DNA from: Sipunculus nudus
Lineage: Eukaryota > Annelida > Sipuncula > Golfingiida > Sipunculidae
DNA length: 64,000 bases
NCBI GenBank assembly: GCA_026874595.1
Contig: CM049306.1
Coordinates: 57,418,019 to 57,482,018, forward strand
Reading direction: 5' to 3'
Below the pieces are notes generated by a model, which saw nothing but the letters and a program-made list of their open reading frames with translations, made no database searches and had not been told where the DNA came from. The translations under genes were made by a program, and so were the position numbers. Below are positions 3,046-39,408 of the stretch, in pieces (positions within the stretch are counted from its first letter, which is position 1; each line of letters starts with the position of its first letter).

Positions 3046-3136
3046 GAAATAAAGTTCAAGACTTTGACCACTAAAGGCAGAAGTCGTATCCATGGGCGTT
3101 CAATCTCAGCCTCGTCCACTGACAGCTACAGTTCAA
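3046..3136 (+). CDS. AHCYL1/2 (IRBIT)-like internal exon, serine cluster
   Basis: A 91-bp exon with acceptor ttatctttgcag and donor GTAAGC, entering in phase 0 and leaving in phase 1. It encodes 30 residues, [13 protein letters not shown]... ending [13 protein letters not shown]. This matches the regulatory segment of vertebrate IRBIT (…[23 protein letters not shown]). In IRBIT that serine cluster is phosphorylated (priming Ser68, then Ser71/74/77), which enables binding to the IP3-binding core of the IP3 receptor and to other partners. The cluster is retained here with one Q-to-A change. The exon has no ATG, so it needs an upstream first exon, which I do not find between 1 and 3045. It can splice in frame to 39350 (36 kb intron). 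Identity is firm; exact isoform use is inferred. Confidence 0.88.
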
Positions 3137-3814
3137 GTAAGCACTGACAGATTTTAACAGTTTCCCATCTGGAGCACCACCAAGGCATATGTCATGAACT
3201 AATCCATATCTATTTGTAGGCGTATGAAACACCACTCTAAAATGATGCCTGGGACTCCTTCATTTGGGCCCTATTCCTGATATCAGAGATGCATGTAACA
3301 GGTTTATTTTCAGTTTTAAACATTTCTAGAATGACTACCATAAATATTCTAAATTTCTTTTTCATTTGCATGAGAATACCTTCATGAATATGTGTCAAAT
3401 TGTAATCTTGTGCATGCCAGGGGCACATGGTGTGTCCTTTTGATGCTACACATGGATCTAGTGCTTAGTCCATATTATTAAACCTCCTTGGGTTTAATAA
3501 AGACCATTGCTTGGTGTAAAACCTTATCATAGCTTGCTTTGATTTATTTGTACACCATGAAAATCTGTTAGACATCTGGTAGCAAGCTACACAATGTCCC
3601 ACATATCCTTTGTACCACCAGCATATGTTAATCTGAGTATTAAAAACTCACCTGCAGTTCTTTTTCATTGATATTACTGTCTCTAGAAGAAGATCATGTA
3701 ACACATAAGCTGTGGATTAAAAAAAAATTGTAGGCTTACACTTAGGTTAAATTTGCTGAAATTTGTATTTAAAAGCAATTTTGGTGGGTTTTAAAATTCA
3801 TTTGTGTATTTCTT
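3137..3814. other. Intron, nothing recognised
   Basis: AT-rich non-coding sequence between the serine-cluster exon and the first family A HINE. No exon, RNA gene or clear repeat border seen. Confidence 0.6.
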
Positions 3815-4964
3815 TCCGCCCAAACAAAGTTTTGCAGATACTGTGTTTTTGACCGGGTTCCGCCGCCTTGTTCTTTTCCGGAATAGCACGCTGAGACCAC
3901 TGGACAGATTTTTTCGAAACTTTACACGAATATCGGGACACATGTGAACTGGTGCCAAAATATTTTGCGTTGACCTCTGACCTTTCCTGCTTTCAGTGCG
4001 TCCATCTGTGCGTCTGTTTTGACACATTAACCCACATATCTCGATAACTGTTTGATAGATCAGGAAAAAATTTTTTGCACAAATGCAGCCCTTGGATAGC
4101 TTTATAACATACATAAAAATGGTGGCGCCACCTGCAACCATTTTTGCACAGCGTCCATCTGCTCATCTGCCTTGGGATAAAATCACTTATATCTCTGCAT
4201 TGGTTGGACTTATCCACCTGAAATTTTGCATGTGTATACATCCTTGACAGCTTTATTGATTTTAGGACAGGTGGTGCCACCTACATTCAGGTTTACACTG
4301 CAGACATCCAAGCTCATATCTCGGGAACCGTTTGACTGATTGGGCCAAAATTTCGCACAGGTCTAGATCTCACATAGCTCTTTATCATAGGCAAAACTGT
4401 TGGCGCTACCTGCAACTATTTTTGCACAGTGTCCGTCTGTTTGTCTGCAATGGGGAAAAATCACTCATACTTTGGCAGTGGTTTGACTTATCTGCCTCAA
4501 ATTTTGCAGGTTTTTACATCTTGGATAGCTTTCTGGATTTTGTGGCAGTTGGCTCCACCTACATTTATGTTTATGTGCAGACACCTAGGCTTATTTTTAG
4601 GGAACTGTTTGACCAATTGGGCCAAAATTTTGCATGTGTATAGATCTCACATAGTTCTTTATCATACGCAAAACTGGTGGCGCCGCCTGCAACCATTTTT
4701 GCACAGTGTCCGTCTGTTTTTCTGCTGTGGGATAAAATTACTCATATCTTGACTTTTTGCATATGTATACAACTTTTACAGCTTTCTGGATTTTGTGGTA
4801 GGTGACACAACCTACATACACATTTCAGCTGCAGACATCCATGCTAATATGCAACACACCTCACTCTATTTCCCCTTGCCACTCAATCCATGCCTAACTT
4901 CACCCATCCCATTCTGATTTCGGCAGATACACTTAGTCGCTTGTCGAGACTACCCGTATTCTAG
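3815..4964. mobile_element. HINE/Helentron-like element family A, copy 1
   Basis: Non-autonomous rolling-circle-like element, diverged. The 5' end is TTCCGCCCAAAC…TTTTGCAGATAC, a damaged version of the hairpin GTATCCGC…GCGGATAC. The 3' end has GGCAGATACA, then the stem-loop TAGTCG-cttgt-CGA(ga)CTA, eight bases, and CTAG|TT. The core is about 2.5 tandem units of roughly 280 bp. Each unit carries two versions of the palindrome AGGTGGCGCCACCT, with centres near 4126, 4275, 4404, 4553, 4681 and 4806. Short open frames inside (for example 4332-4752) follow the repeat unit and are not genes. Confidence 0.75.
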
Positions 4965-5700
4965 TTTTACATGGTGTTATACAAATTTGAGAAGAATGCA
5001 AAGAAATATTTAAAAATCAAAAAAATATTTAAAAAATTCAGTATCCATATCTGGAAAGATGAGTGTAGTGATGAGTGGAAGTGCTCTACAAGGTGAAAGT
5101 CCATCAATAATGAGTTATCATACCTGGAGCCATACAGGTTACTTTGGAGTCGAAACATAAATGAAAGCAGATAATCTAGTCTTGAAAACTATGCTTTTTA
5201 AAAGTTGTTTGCTATTTTCATATATTCATGGAAACTGGTCACTCATAAAAATTTTAAGCCACAGAAAAAAACAGACTCCACATTGTGCCATAGTTATCAT
5301 CTAATGGGGCTGTCTCACTAAGGCGACTGTTCAGGTGACTACTGGTGAGCAGGCTGTTGCCACATGGTTGTAAGGGTGTCACCTATATGGTTGGAAGTCT
5401 CCTGAAGGCACCCAAAGACTTCTGGCCTCTTTCCTGTTGCCACTGGATTTTCATAATGTTTCAGATTCCCAGGAGACAGCTTGTAGCAGGTGGATGTAGC
5501 ATGAATTCAGATCTCGAAAAGTTGTCACCAGCGTGGTCGTAAGTTGTTGTAGGTGTGGTCGTAGGTTGTTGTAGTGATTGTCCTTTGTCACATTGATTGT
5601 GTCGCTGGCAGCTTGACGTCAGATAAGCATCAAGTTGTTGTAGTTTGTCGTACCCTGTCGTAGCAGGAATCCTGTCACCGGTTTTTAAGTGACCTCCTAC
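4965..5700. other. Non-coding; short GTCGTA/GTTGTA repeats
   Basis: AT-rich from 4965 to 5290. From 5290 the sequence is less AT-rich and contains a near-tandem of about 22 bp at 5535-5580 (GTGGTCGTA-gttgttgta) and scattered GTCACC/GGTGAC motifs. No coding sequence recognised. Confidence 0.4.
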
Positions 5701-6110
5701 AACCATGAAGATCTCCAGCAGTTGCCTTTAAAGTCGGCCACGTGTATACGCTCCTGAGGCAGCGGAAATCTTGCGCTTCTAAAGAAGCAACTGATTTTCA
5801 TGCTGCCAGCTTTGACCGTTTATGATATATTTAGACACCAGATGGCGGTTCGTTGTAAGCTGAAAAAAAACGTGTGTATGATGTGACAAGCAGCCAACCA
5901 GATGCTAATAAACAAATGAACATGATTGGCTCCGTGTATTCCTCGCTTGGCTGTGTCTTCCACCACAAGGTCTCATCTGATTGGACAAAAATTACAGTGC
6001 TCCCCTCTGGTGTAGCAATTCAGGATACGAGGTCTTAACAAACAGCGCTTATAGGTAGTAAGCCTATAGTTAAAGCGCTGTGTAAAGAGCGTAAAGTGGC
6101 ACAGCCCAAA
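5700..6110. promoter_or_regulatory. CpG-richer patch with CCAAT boxes
   Basis: This patch has more CpG than its surroundings. It contains a CACGTG E-box near 5738, a YY1-like AGATGGCGG near 5842, and two inverted CCAAT boxes (ATTGG near 5925 and 5980). These are promoter-like ingredients, but no start codon or donor compatible with the downstream gene is evident. It could be an unannotated transcription start or an old element. Weak evidence only. Confidence 0.25.
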
Positions 6111-37994: not shown

Positions 37995-38045
37995 AGAAAG
38001 AGGGAGACAGACAGACAAAAGACACAGAGAAAGAAAGAGATTGAG
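37951..38045. repeat. (GA)n microsatellite
   Basis: A long GA run with a few C, AA and GG interruptions. The minus-strand SLSLSL frame is this repeat. Confidence 0.95.
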
Positions 38046-38513
38046 ATTTGTATATATGGGGTGGGCAAATGTTGACTTCATATTATTGCAGGTTATATTT
38101 TGAAAAAAAATTTCCATTGCTGTAACAAGTAAATGCACATATTTAAGGCTTCACCAAATTGTAAATATTGCACAGGTCTTGATAAAAGTGTTTCCTGCTG
38201 TTATTATCAGCAACCATATAAGTGCCACTTCTGTTGTTTTTTACATTCTTAATGTCAGGGACTTTAATTTGTGAAAGTATTCATGATGTCATAAAACACA
38301 TGATGTTTAAATTATTGTTACTTTTTCAAAATAAATAAAATTTCTAGGGCTTCCCATTTTCCCCATACTTTTCGTTGACAAAAGGTGACAGGTTTGGCGT
38401 TTGGAACCTCAAGCATTTTTATTTTTCTTATTTATTTCATCTTATTTATTTCAGAACAGAACATGTGATTGCATAATATAAAAGTAGATACACGTACTCA
38501 TAGATAGGTAGAT

Positions 38514-38688
38514 AGTTAGATAAATACAGATATATGGTTCATGTATTTCATGTGGTCATAAATATACTGCGTATAAAGATGTGCTTACTGCTTTAATTGT
38601 AGTTAGATAAATACAGGTATATGGTTCATGTATTTCATGTGGTCATAAATATACTGCGTATAAAGATGTGCTTACTGCTTTAATTGTA
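38514..38688. repeat. 87-bp tandem duplication
   Basis: AGTTAGATAAATACAGATAT… at 38514 is repeated at 38601 almost without change through …CTGCTTTAATTGTA. Two copies only, so likely recent. Confidence 0.93.
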
Positions 38689-39349
38689 ATATACTGTTCT
38701 CATACACTTAAAGTCTTGCTATGGACAGATCTTGCAAGGTCAAAGAGAAATTGACATTTCTTCATTATATATTTTGTATAGTATTGATGATGAATTGGTG
38801 TCAAAATGTATTAACATATTTGTGGATTTTCTGATTTTTCTGCAAAAGTTGAGTCAAAATTTATATGGCCAGTTTCACAAATAAATCAATGATTCATATT
38901 TATTTTTCTTTTCTGCACATATATTTCCCTTAAGTCTGTTAAGTTAATTGATTTTGCCCTTTTGAAGTTCAGCTGACTTCCTGCTGAACTTGAGTGATAG
39001 ATCTTTTTTGGTTGTATGTGCACTGTAACCAGACATATATATATTTCTGTCATATGACTAGGTTTTAACAAAATTGGCAAACATGTTTGTCTAAAATGTG
39101 ACTAAAAGTTATAAATTATAACCTGTTACATAATGCTATAGGCGAATGGTTGTCAGCTGAGCATCATGACCCATGGGTCACTTGTTTTTGTACTAATTGA
39201 TTTTCCTGTTGTCTACTCTTATTTTTTGTTATGCTAGTTGCTTACTAATTTTCGTAACTGTTAAATAGTTCATGATTTGGTATTTGTCCACCTTGTGTAG
39301 ATAATAGCAATAGCCCACTCTTTCATGATTTTGTCTTTTTATCTTGTAG

Positions 39350-39408
39350 CATCCTACACTGGGAGTTCATCAGATGAAGAAGATGTCAACCCACGAGACA
39401 AAGACCAG
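39350..39408 (+). CDS. AHCYL1/2 (IRBIT)-like exon, acidic linker
   Basis: A 59-bp exon with acceptor tttatcttgtag and donor CCAG|GTAAAC. It enters in phase 1 and leaves in phase 0. It encodes (x)SYTGSSSDEEDVNPRDKDQ, aligning with SYTDSSDDEVSPREKQQ of vertebrate AHCYL1 and SYTDSSDDETSPRDKQQ of AHCYL2. This is the acidic, PEST-like segment between the regulatory serine cluster and the catalytic-like domain. It is the common acceptor for all three upstream candidate exons (3046, 12787 and 29335). Whether the gene is ancestral to both vertebrate paralogues cannot be decided from this fragment; most invertebrates have a single such gene. Confidence 0.92.

What the first reader, a model, noticed from the sequence alone, without database searches (positions are those of the whole stretch)
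3046..39408. Three mutually compatible N-terminal exons of an IRBIT-type gene, all phase 1
The exons ending at 3136, 12820 and 29536 each finish with one unpaired codon base, and the exon at 39350 starts with two. Any of the three can therefore splice to it in frame, giving S-T-S, E-A-S or C-S-S at the junction. Alternative N-termini with different partner choice are known for AHCYL proteins in vertebrates. Here the choice is spread over 36 kb as separate first-exon units, and two of the exons have sequences I do not recognise from other animals.
Basis: partly seen in the sequence, partly recalled or inferred. Interest (0 to 1): 0.75.

Follow-up and report, generated by a model that had tools for sequence, protein, structure and literature searches.

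The report
Alternative starts of an IRBIT-type gene
An animal gene for the calcium-signalling regulator IRBIT may begin its protein in up to three different ways, one well supported by sequence, one probable and one doubtful, which would let a single gene swap its regulatory front end.

Summary
The exons and phase arithmetic are real, but the "three first exons" reading needs correction. The gene is a genuine AHCYL/IRBIT gene: the joined exons give 526 aa, 76% identical to human AHCYL1 end to end, and the core matches PDB 3mtg at 874.7 bits. It spans about 141 kb, and one such locus was found in the 1.43-Gb genome. Exon 3046-3136 (E1) is not a first exon. It has a strong acceptor, and a blind scan found a fitting phase-0 first exon (E0) 12.4 kb upstream, outside the window. 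E0-E1 gives the ordinary IRBIT N-terminus with a four-serine S-x-x-S phosphorylation ladder. Exon 29377-29536 (E3) ranks first of 202 phase-1 candidates, and 0 of 300 simulated introns reached its score. It is probably a real alternative start, with RRRSS sites but no full ladder. Exon 12787-12820 (E2, 11 codons) is borderline: 17 of 300 simulations reached its score and its promoter score is ordinary. No transcript or related species could be checked. Alternative IRBIT-family N-termini are already reported for Long-IRBIT, so this is a variant of a known kind.

The parts
3046..3136 (+). E1: second coding exon of the ordinary IRBIT isoform ([30 protein letters not shown]), phase 0 in, phase 1 out; carries the serine ladder
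   Evidence: Acceptor score 5.8, donor 4.1; similarity to the typed human AHCYL1 N-terminus reached in 0 of 2000 shuffles; one match in the genome. Its first exon E0 lies outside the window at -9513..-9382 = G000:C1:57408505-57408636.
3010..3045 (+). In-frame ATG and 12 codons (MKFAEDILLSLQ) directly upstream of E1: possible extra start if E1 is also used as a first exon
   Evidence: Sequence; coding score -4.5 bits speaks against it; resemblance of FAED to human FADD is only suggestive
12787..12820 (+). E2: candidate short first coding exon (MPVDYYDSDDE), phase 1 out
   Evidence: Coding 4.4 bits, donor 6.7, Kozak 0.9, total 12.1; 17 of 300 simulated introns reach this; no phase-1 acceptor above -3 without an in-frame stop; one match in the genome
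29377..29536 (+). E3: probable alternative first coding exon (MSAPSHKPGDSVPEKIIEEEQEEFKKRQRRRSSIAVPQISRRRSSISGGDSVC), phase 1 out; an in-frame ATG at 29335 has a poorer context
   Evidence: Ranks first of 202 phase-1 candidates, total 18.6; 0 of 300 simulations reach it; one match in the genome as DNA and as peptide
29272..29279 (+). TATA-like box (TATAAAAT) upstream of E3, with an initiator-like site near 29306
   Evidence: 8.5% of 4000 random positions score as well, so weak; an acceptor-like site at 29308 (2.6) overlaps the initiator
39350..39408 (+). Common exon C (..SYTGSSSDEEDVNPRDKDQ), phase 1 in, phase 0 out
   Evidence: Acceptor 5.1, donor 3.7; aligns with human AHCYL1 ASYTDSSDDEVSPREKQQ
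48125..48212 (+). Next exon ([29 protein letters not shown]), phase 0 in, phase 1 out
   Evidence: tblastn E = 1e-6 against human AHCYL1; joins the core exons further down the contig

Best explanation
This is the 5' half of an AHCYL/IRBIT gene with alternative N-termini. The ordinary transcript starts at E0, outside the window, and is spliced E0-E1-C-core (shown as sequence; splicing inferred). A second start, E3, is spliced directly to C and skips E1 (probable). A third, E2, may do the same (uncertain). Choice of first exon replaces the N-terminal module while the AHCY-like domain stays constant. E0-E1 carries an RxxS-primed S-x-x-S ladder (S65-S68-S71-S74), the counterpart of human S68-S71-S74-S77, whose phosphorylation human IRBIT needs to bind the IP3 receptor. 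E3 would offer two RRRSS basophilic motifs but a ladder of only two serines, and E2 none. The E2 and E3 forms are therefore predicted to lose or re-wire phosphorylation-dependent partners while keeping oligomerisation and phosphorylation-independent partners.
For: Gene identity: PDB 3mtg 874.7 bits and 3gvp 857.2, against at most 554.1 for AHCY chains; 403 of 530 aligned positions identical to human AHCYL1. E0: first of 213 phase-0 candidates (20.9; next 14.7), 0 of 300 simulations reach it, and its phase-0 donor fits the phase-0 acceptor of E1. E3: first of 202 phase-1 candidates (18.6), 0 of 300 simulations. Of 17 phase-1 ORFs of 53 or more codons with donor at least 2 on both strands, only E3 has a positive coding score (15.4; the other 16 are -0.4 or less). 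Acceptors that could make E2 or E3 an in-frame cassette after E1 (phase 1, no in-frame stop) are poor: none above -3 for E2, best -0.5 for E3 at 29417; phase-1 sites at 12725 (-0.5) and 29312 (1.3) would read an in-frame stop. The 420 bases ending at E3 are rich in GC and CpG (matched on both by 3% of windows). Ladders. Function of the human ladder, and loss of PIP-kinase binding by IRBIT 78-530: passages of PMC4624786. Long-IRBIT splice variants with different N-termini, stability and targets, hetero-multimers, and AE2 binding without the phosphorylation sites: passages of PMC7966362.
Against: No RNA evidence and no related genome. The E3 donor is weak upstream of the cut (GCT|GTAAGT, 2.2). 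Similarity of E3 to E1 (0.59), to E0-E1 (0.23), to the human AHCYL1 N-terminus (0.06) and to its exon-2-like part (0.15) is not above chance; against the AHCYL2 part it is 0.049, but a minus-strand chance ORF of the 159 compared scores higher (36 against 34). The synonymous-codon part of E3's score is small (3.4 bits), and one other frame of the same DNA scores 12.0 although it holds six stops. Ten listed stop-free stretches of 53 codons score above E3, E0 among them, most of the rest repeat-like. E0 against human exon 1 is not significant by shuffling (0.11). Promoter scores are ordinary for E0 (0.79) and E2 (0.50) and weak for E3 (0.085). Simulated introns contain no transposon ORFs; the real minus strand reaches 14.7 in phase 0 and 17.7 in phase 2, the latter in a probable transposon relic.
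Confidence: 0.6

Rival explanations
1. E2 and E3 are chance ORFs in a 36-kb intron. The gene makes only the E0-E1 isoform.
For: No transcript or conservation; E2 is reached by 17 of 300 simulations and nearly by a minus-strand candidate (11.6 against 12.1); E3 has no demonstrable homologue.
Against: E3 is reached by 0 of 300 simulations and lies on the right strand, in the right phase, with a fair ATG context (1.9). More credible for E2 than for E3.
Confidence: 0.25
2. E3 is real coding sequence but is a second exon behind an untranslated exon (acceptor at 29308). The isoforms would then come from alternative splicing of an upstream promoter, not from a promoter at 29.27 kb.
For: gttaattacctttacctcag|ACAG scores 2.6, inside the 0.0-10.0 range of the 16 acceptors of this gene scored and just under the 95th percentile of all AGs (2.9).
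Against: A TATA-like box sits about 34 bases upstream of the same place (weak). The protein outcome is the same, because an in-frame stop precedes the ATG.
Confidence: 0.2
3. E1 is also a first exon, starting at ATG 3010 (MKFAEDILLSLQ-E1), so E1 has both an internal and a first-exon use, as I recall (from no call) for a short human AHCYL1 isoform.
For: ATG in frame, and MKFAED resembles human QIQFADD; TATA-like site at 2812 (0.12); CpG ratio of the flank raised (reached by 10% of windows).
Against: Coding score of the added 12 codons is -4.5 bits; the 3046 acceptor is strong.
Confidence: 0.2
4. E3 or E0 belongs to another gene nested in or overlapping this locus.
For: Neither has proven homology to AHCYL N-termini.
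Against: Both are on the same strand with fitting phases; the E3-C peptide has only two Pfam matches, both below their cut-offs.
Confidence: 0.1

Closest known systems
Long-IRBIT (AHCYL2) N-terminal splice variants
   Same: One AHCY-like body joined to different N-terminal sequences, with different stability and targets (PMC7966362, passages)
   Different: Here one AHCYL-type locus was found. The E2 and E3 peptides were not compared with the Long-IRBIT variant sequences, which I did not see.
Human IRBIT / AHCYL1
   Same: 526-aa model aligns end to end, 76% identical; serine ladder kept in E0-E1
   Different: The ladder's start lies in an exon (E1) that the E2 and E3 forms would skip
AHCY (S-adenosylhomocysteine hydrolase)
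   Same: Shared Pfam domains PF05221 and PF00670
   Different: AHCY chains match less well; a separate locus on C11 is less similar to AHCYL1 (36-69% per row)

Membership tests
AHCYL/IRBIT family | C-terminal AHCY-like domain | tested here: met
   PF05221 401.9 bits, PF00670 267 bits
AHCYL/IRBIT family | Closer to AHCYL1/2 than to AHCY | tested here: met
   874.7 and 857.2 bits against at most 554.1 for AHCY chains
AHCYL/IRBIT family | Basophilic-primed S-x-x-S serine ladder in the N-terminal region, E0-E1 form | tested here: met
   S65-S68-S71-S74
AHCYL/IRBIT family | The same ladder in the E2 form | tested here: not met
   No RxxS/T site, no ladder
AHCYL/IRBIT family | The same ladder in the E3 form | tested here: not met
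   Four RxxS sites (S32, S33, S44, S45) but the longest ladder is two serines, S44-S47
AHCYL/IRBIT family | Loss of SAH-hydrolase catalysis by residue substitution | not tested
   Described for AHCYL1/2 in PMC12955632 (passages); residues not compared here
IRBIT-family alternative N-termini | Different N-terminal exons join one common exon in frame | tested here: met
   three in-frame joins, as sequence only
IRBIT-family alternative N-termini | Transcripts of each form exist | not testable with these tools
   No RNA data held
Long-IRBIT-specific N-terminal extension | Extension rich in Pro and Ala (PMC12955632, passages) | tested here: not met
   E0 is 44 residues, acidic, with three Pro and one Ala (sequence)

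The most novel reading that the evidence does not exclude
One IRBIT gene in this animal makes three functionally distinct forms by first-exon choice: a phosphorylation-ladder form (E0-E1), a form gated by basophilic kinases without the CK1 ladder (E3), and a short ungated form that can only dilute or lock hetero-oligomers (E2). It would thereby do within one gene what vertebrates share between AHCYL1, AHCYL2 and the Long-IRBIT variants.
Probability: 0.3. Interest if true: 0.55.

Novelty: new variant of a known kind. Interest (0 to 1): 0.35.

Why it matters
IRBIT-family proteins choose many of their partners through the N-terminal serine region. The forms without a full ladder would be natural tests of which partners need the phosphorylation ladder. 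The corrected gene model (E0 outside the window) also shows how reading a fixed window can turn an internal exon into an apparent first exon.

Tried and rejected
Rejected: E1 as a first-exon unit on its own (strong acceptor at 3046; E0 found upstream). Rejected: E2 or E3 as in-frame cassette exons after E1 (phase-1 acceptors without an in-frame stop: none above -3 for E2, best -0.5 for E3 at 29417). Rejected: the exon blocks as transposon copies; E1, E2 and E3 DNA each had one match in the genome, and E0 had a second match covering only its 5' flank. The DNA search skips very common words, so this is not proof of rarity. Rejected: duplication of E1 as the origin of E3 (similarity not above shuffled sequence). 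Rejected: promoter motifs as support for E2 or E0. No lead: E3 peptide in viral contigs (273 pattern stretches, none confirmed); E3 and E0 peptides elsewhere in the genome (only themselves); Pfam on the E3-C peptide (two sub-threshold matches); inverted repeats at 2500-3500 (none).

Literature: ten searches. Judged from titles and starts of abstracts as listed (one search listed 12 of 153 papers), none is about alternative first exons of AHCYL1 or about AHCYL N-termini in molluscs or other invertebrates. Most subscription papers are not held. Passages were seen of four papers only: PMC7966362, PMC4624786, PMC13326754 (tunicate splicing, nothing on AHCYL N-termini in the eight places shown) and PMC12955632. 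The Long-IRBIT variant paper itself was not seen; what I say of it comes from PMC7966362.

Script faults to know: one donor row (L008) was mis-indexed and is ignored; the donor row 48211 used the wrong index and is ignored (one search gives 8.2 for that exon).
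Full report
Check of the observation. The bases are as stated. E1 (3046-3136), E2 (ATG 12787 to 12820) and E3 (ATG 29335 or 29377 to 29536) each end one base into a codon. Exon C (39350-39408) begins with two bases. All three joins stay open and give T, A or S at the junction. C runs in phase 0 into exon 48125-48212.

What gene it is. The window lies at C1:57418019-57482018 of a 1.43-Gb assembly. The only other exon-by-exon locus in that list, on C11, is less similar: 36-69% per row, against 56-87% for the C1 rows. Splicing the C1 exons in a script gives 526 residues, lacking the last few; 403 of 530 aligned positions are identical to human AHCYL1. 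Best PDB matches are 3mtg (874.7 bits) and 3gvp (857.2), the AHCYL1 and AHCYL2-type structures, against at most 554.1 for AHCY chains. This is an AHCYL/IRBIT gene, the only such locus found, spanning at least 141 kb. Limits of the search: matches come exon by exon, and a missing match does not show absence.

Exon 3046-3136 contains no in-frame ATG. I scored ATG-to-donor candidates (at least 8 codons, donor score at least 1.5) on both strands of 124 kb (50 kb upstream, the window, 10 kb downstream) for coding bits, donor and ATG context. Codon usage was trained on 804 codons of the AHCYL core and the second AHCY-type gene, without E0, E1, E2, E3 and C. Of 213 phase-0 candidates the best, on the right strand, is E0 at window -9513..-9382, scoring 20.9 against 14.7 for the next. 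It encodes MSAPDTEKILKGEDVNQNSIMLDNPGYTESVDEDGKDDPENETD. None of 300 fifth-order Markov simulations of the 53-kb stretch upstream of E1 reached 20.9 (maximum 19.3). Its phase-0 donor fits the phase-0 acceptor of E1, which scores 5.8; the 99th percentile of 6,887 AGs is 5.2, and the 15 other acceptors of this gene that I scored range from 0.0 to 10.0. E1 is therefore most likely an internal exon. E0 resembles human AHCYL1 exon 1 at MSxPD, but not significantly by shuffling (0.11), and its promoter score is ordinary (0.79). A less likely use of E1 as a first exon from ATG 3010 (MKFAED..., coding -4.5 bits) is not excluded.

E3. Of 202 phase-1 candidates E3 is first (18.6). The second row is the same ORF with an earlier donor, then comes E2 (12.1), then a minus-strand candidate (11.6). 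None of 300 simulations of the 89 kb upstream of C reached 18.6 (maximum 16.2). Among 17 phase-1 ORFs of at least 53 codons with donor 2 or more on both strands, only E3 scores above zero for coding (15.4 bits; the other 16 are -0.4 or less). The 420 bases ending at E3 are GC- and CpG-rich (both matched by 3% of windows). Against this: the amino-acid make-up carries most of the coding score (synonymous part 2.4-3.4 bits); another frame of the same DNA scores 12.0, though broken by six stops; ten listed stop-free stretches of 53 codons score higher, E0 among them and most of the others repeat-like (up to 26.6); the donor is only moderate (2.2, near the 2.7 of another exon of this gene); and no homology could be shown. 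A TATA-like box at 29272 has a chance of 0.085. An acceptor-like site at 29308 (2.6) leaves open whether E3 is a true 5' end or follows an untranslated exon. I put the chance that E3 is spliced to C at about 0.65.

E2. Eleven codons with a good donor (6.7) reach a total of 12.1; 17 of 300 simulations reach this. Promoter score (0.50) and CpG ratio (reached by 34% of windows) are ordinary. The acidic peptide YYDSDDE continues the acidic style of exon C, but so short a match proves nothing (0.09). I put the chance that E2 is used at about 0.35.

How it would work. In human IRBIT, phosphorylation of Ser68 primes casein kinase I at Ser71, Ser74 and Ser77, and these phosphorylations are critical for binding the IP3 receptor; [quoted passage not shown] Long-IRBIT without the phosphorylation sites still binds AE2; IRBIT and Long-IRBIT form homo- or hetero-multimers; and Long-IRBIT splice variants with other N-termini differ in stability and targets (PMC7966362, passages). 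In this gene the RxxS-primed ladder S65-S68-S71-S74 exists only in E0-E1. E3 has RxxS sites at S32, S33, S44 and S45 with a ladder of two, and E2 has none. The prediction follows: the E0-E1 form is the regulated IRBIT; E3 and E2 forms keep the body but lose the IP3-receptor mode, and in hetero-multimers would dilute it. Shown: sequence, phases, gene identity, ladders. Inferred: splicing, promoter use, binding.

Relation to the known. The gene passes the three family features tested for the E0-E1 form; loss of catalysis was not tested. The E2 and E3 forms fail the ladder test, so they are filed only as possible alternative products. Alternative N-termini are a known kind for Long-IRBIT. New here would be their occurrence, with other peptides, in the only AHCYL-type locus found in this genome. 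The taxon was not determined.

Noticed in passing
G000:C1:57408505-57408636 (window -9513..-9382; L001:487-618): Probable first coding exon of the gene, outside the window. Its 5' flank (query bases 1-169, ending before the ATG) has an 87% identical copy 4.4 kb further upstream at C1:57403929-57404100.
   Followed up: partly
G000 contigs C61, C62, C72, C74, C77, C79, C83, C89, C90: Nine contigs of the assembly each carry an intronless 422-aa open frame for a prokaryote-type SAH hydrolase, with equal or nearly equal scores; the C90 copy was translated. Possibly several strains of a symbiont or contaminant.
   Followed up: partly
window 17408-17869 (-): Open frame with high coding score inside the intron, with a sub-threshold match to a Tc5-type transposase DNA-binding domain (PF03221, 16.6 bits, cut-off 22.2): probably a transposon relic.
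   Followed up: partly
window 4096-4749, 41212-42019, 62389-63793: Tandem arrays of a unit of 278-281 bases at three places in the gene's introns; similar open frames, judged by eye, also in the flanking sequence: an interspersed satellite-like repeat.
   Followed up: no
L012, after the last coding exon seen (about 1914): The last visible coding exon seems to end at a GC donor (AG|GCAAGT), leaving a very short terminal exon unseen.
   Followed up: no
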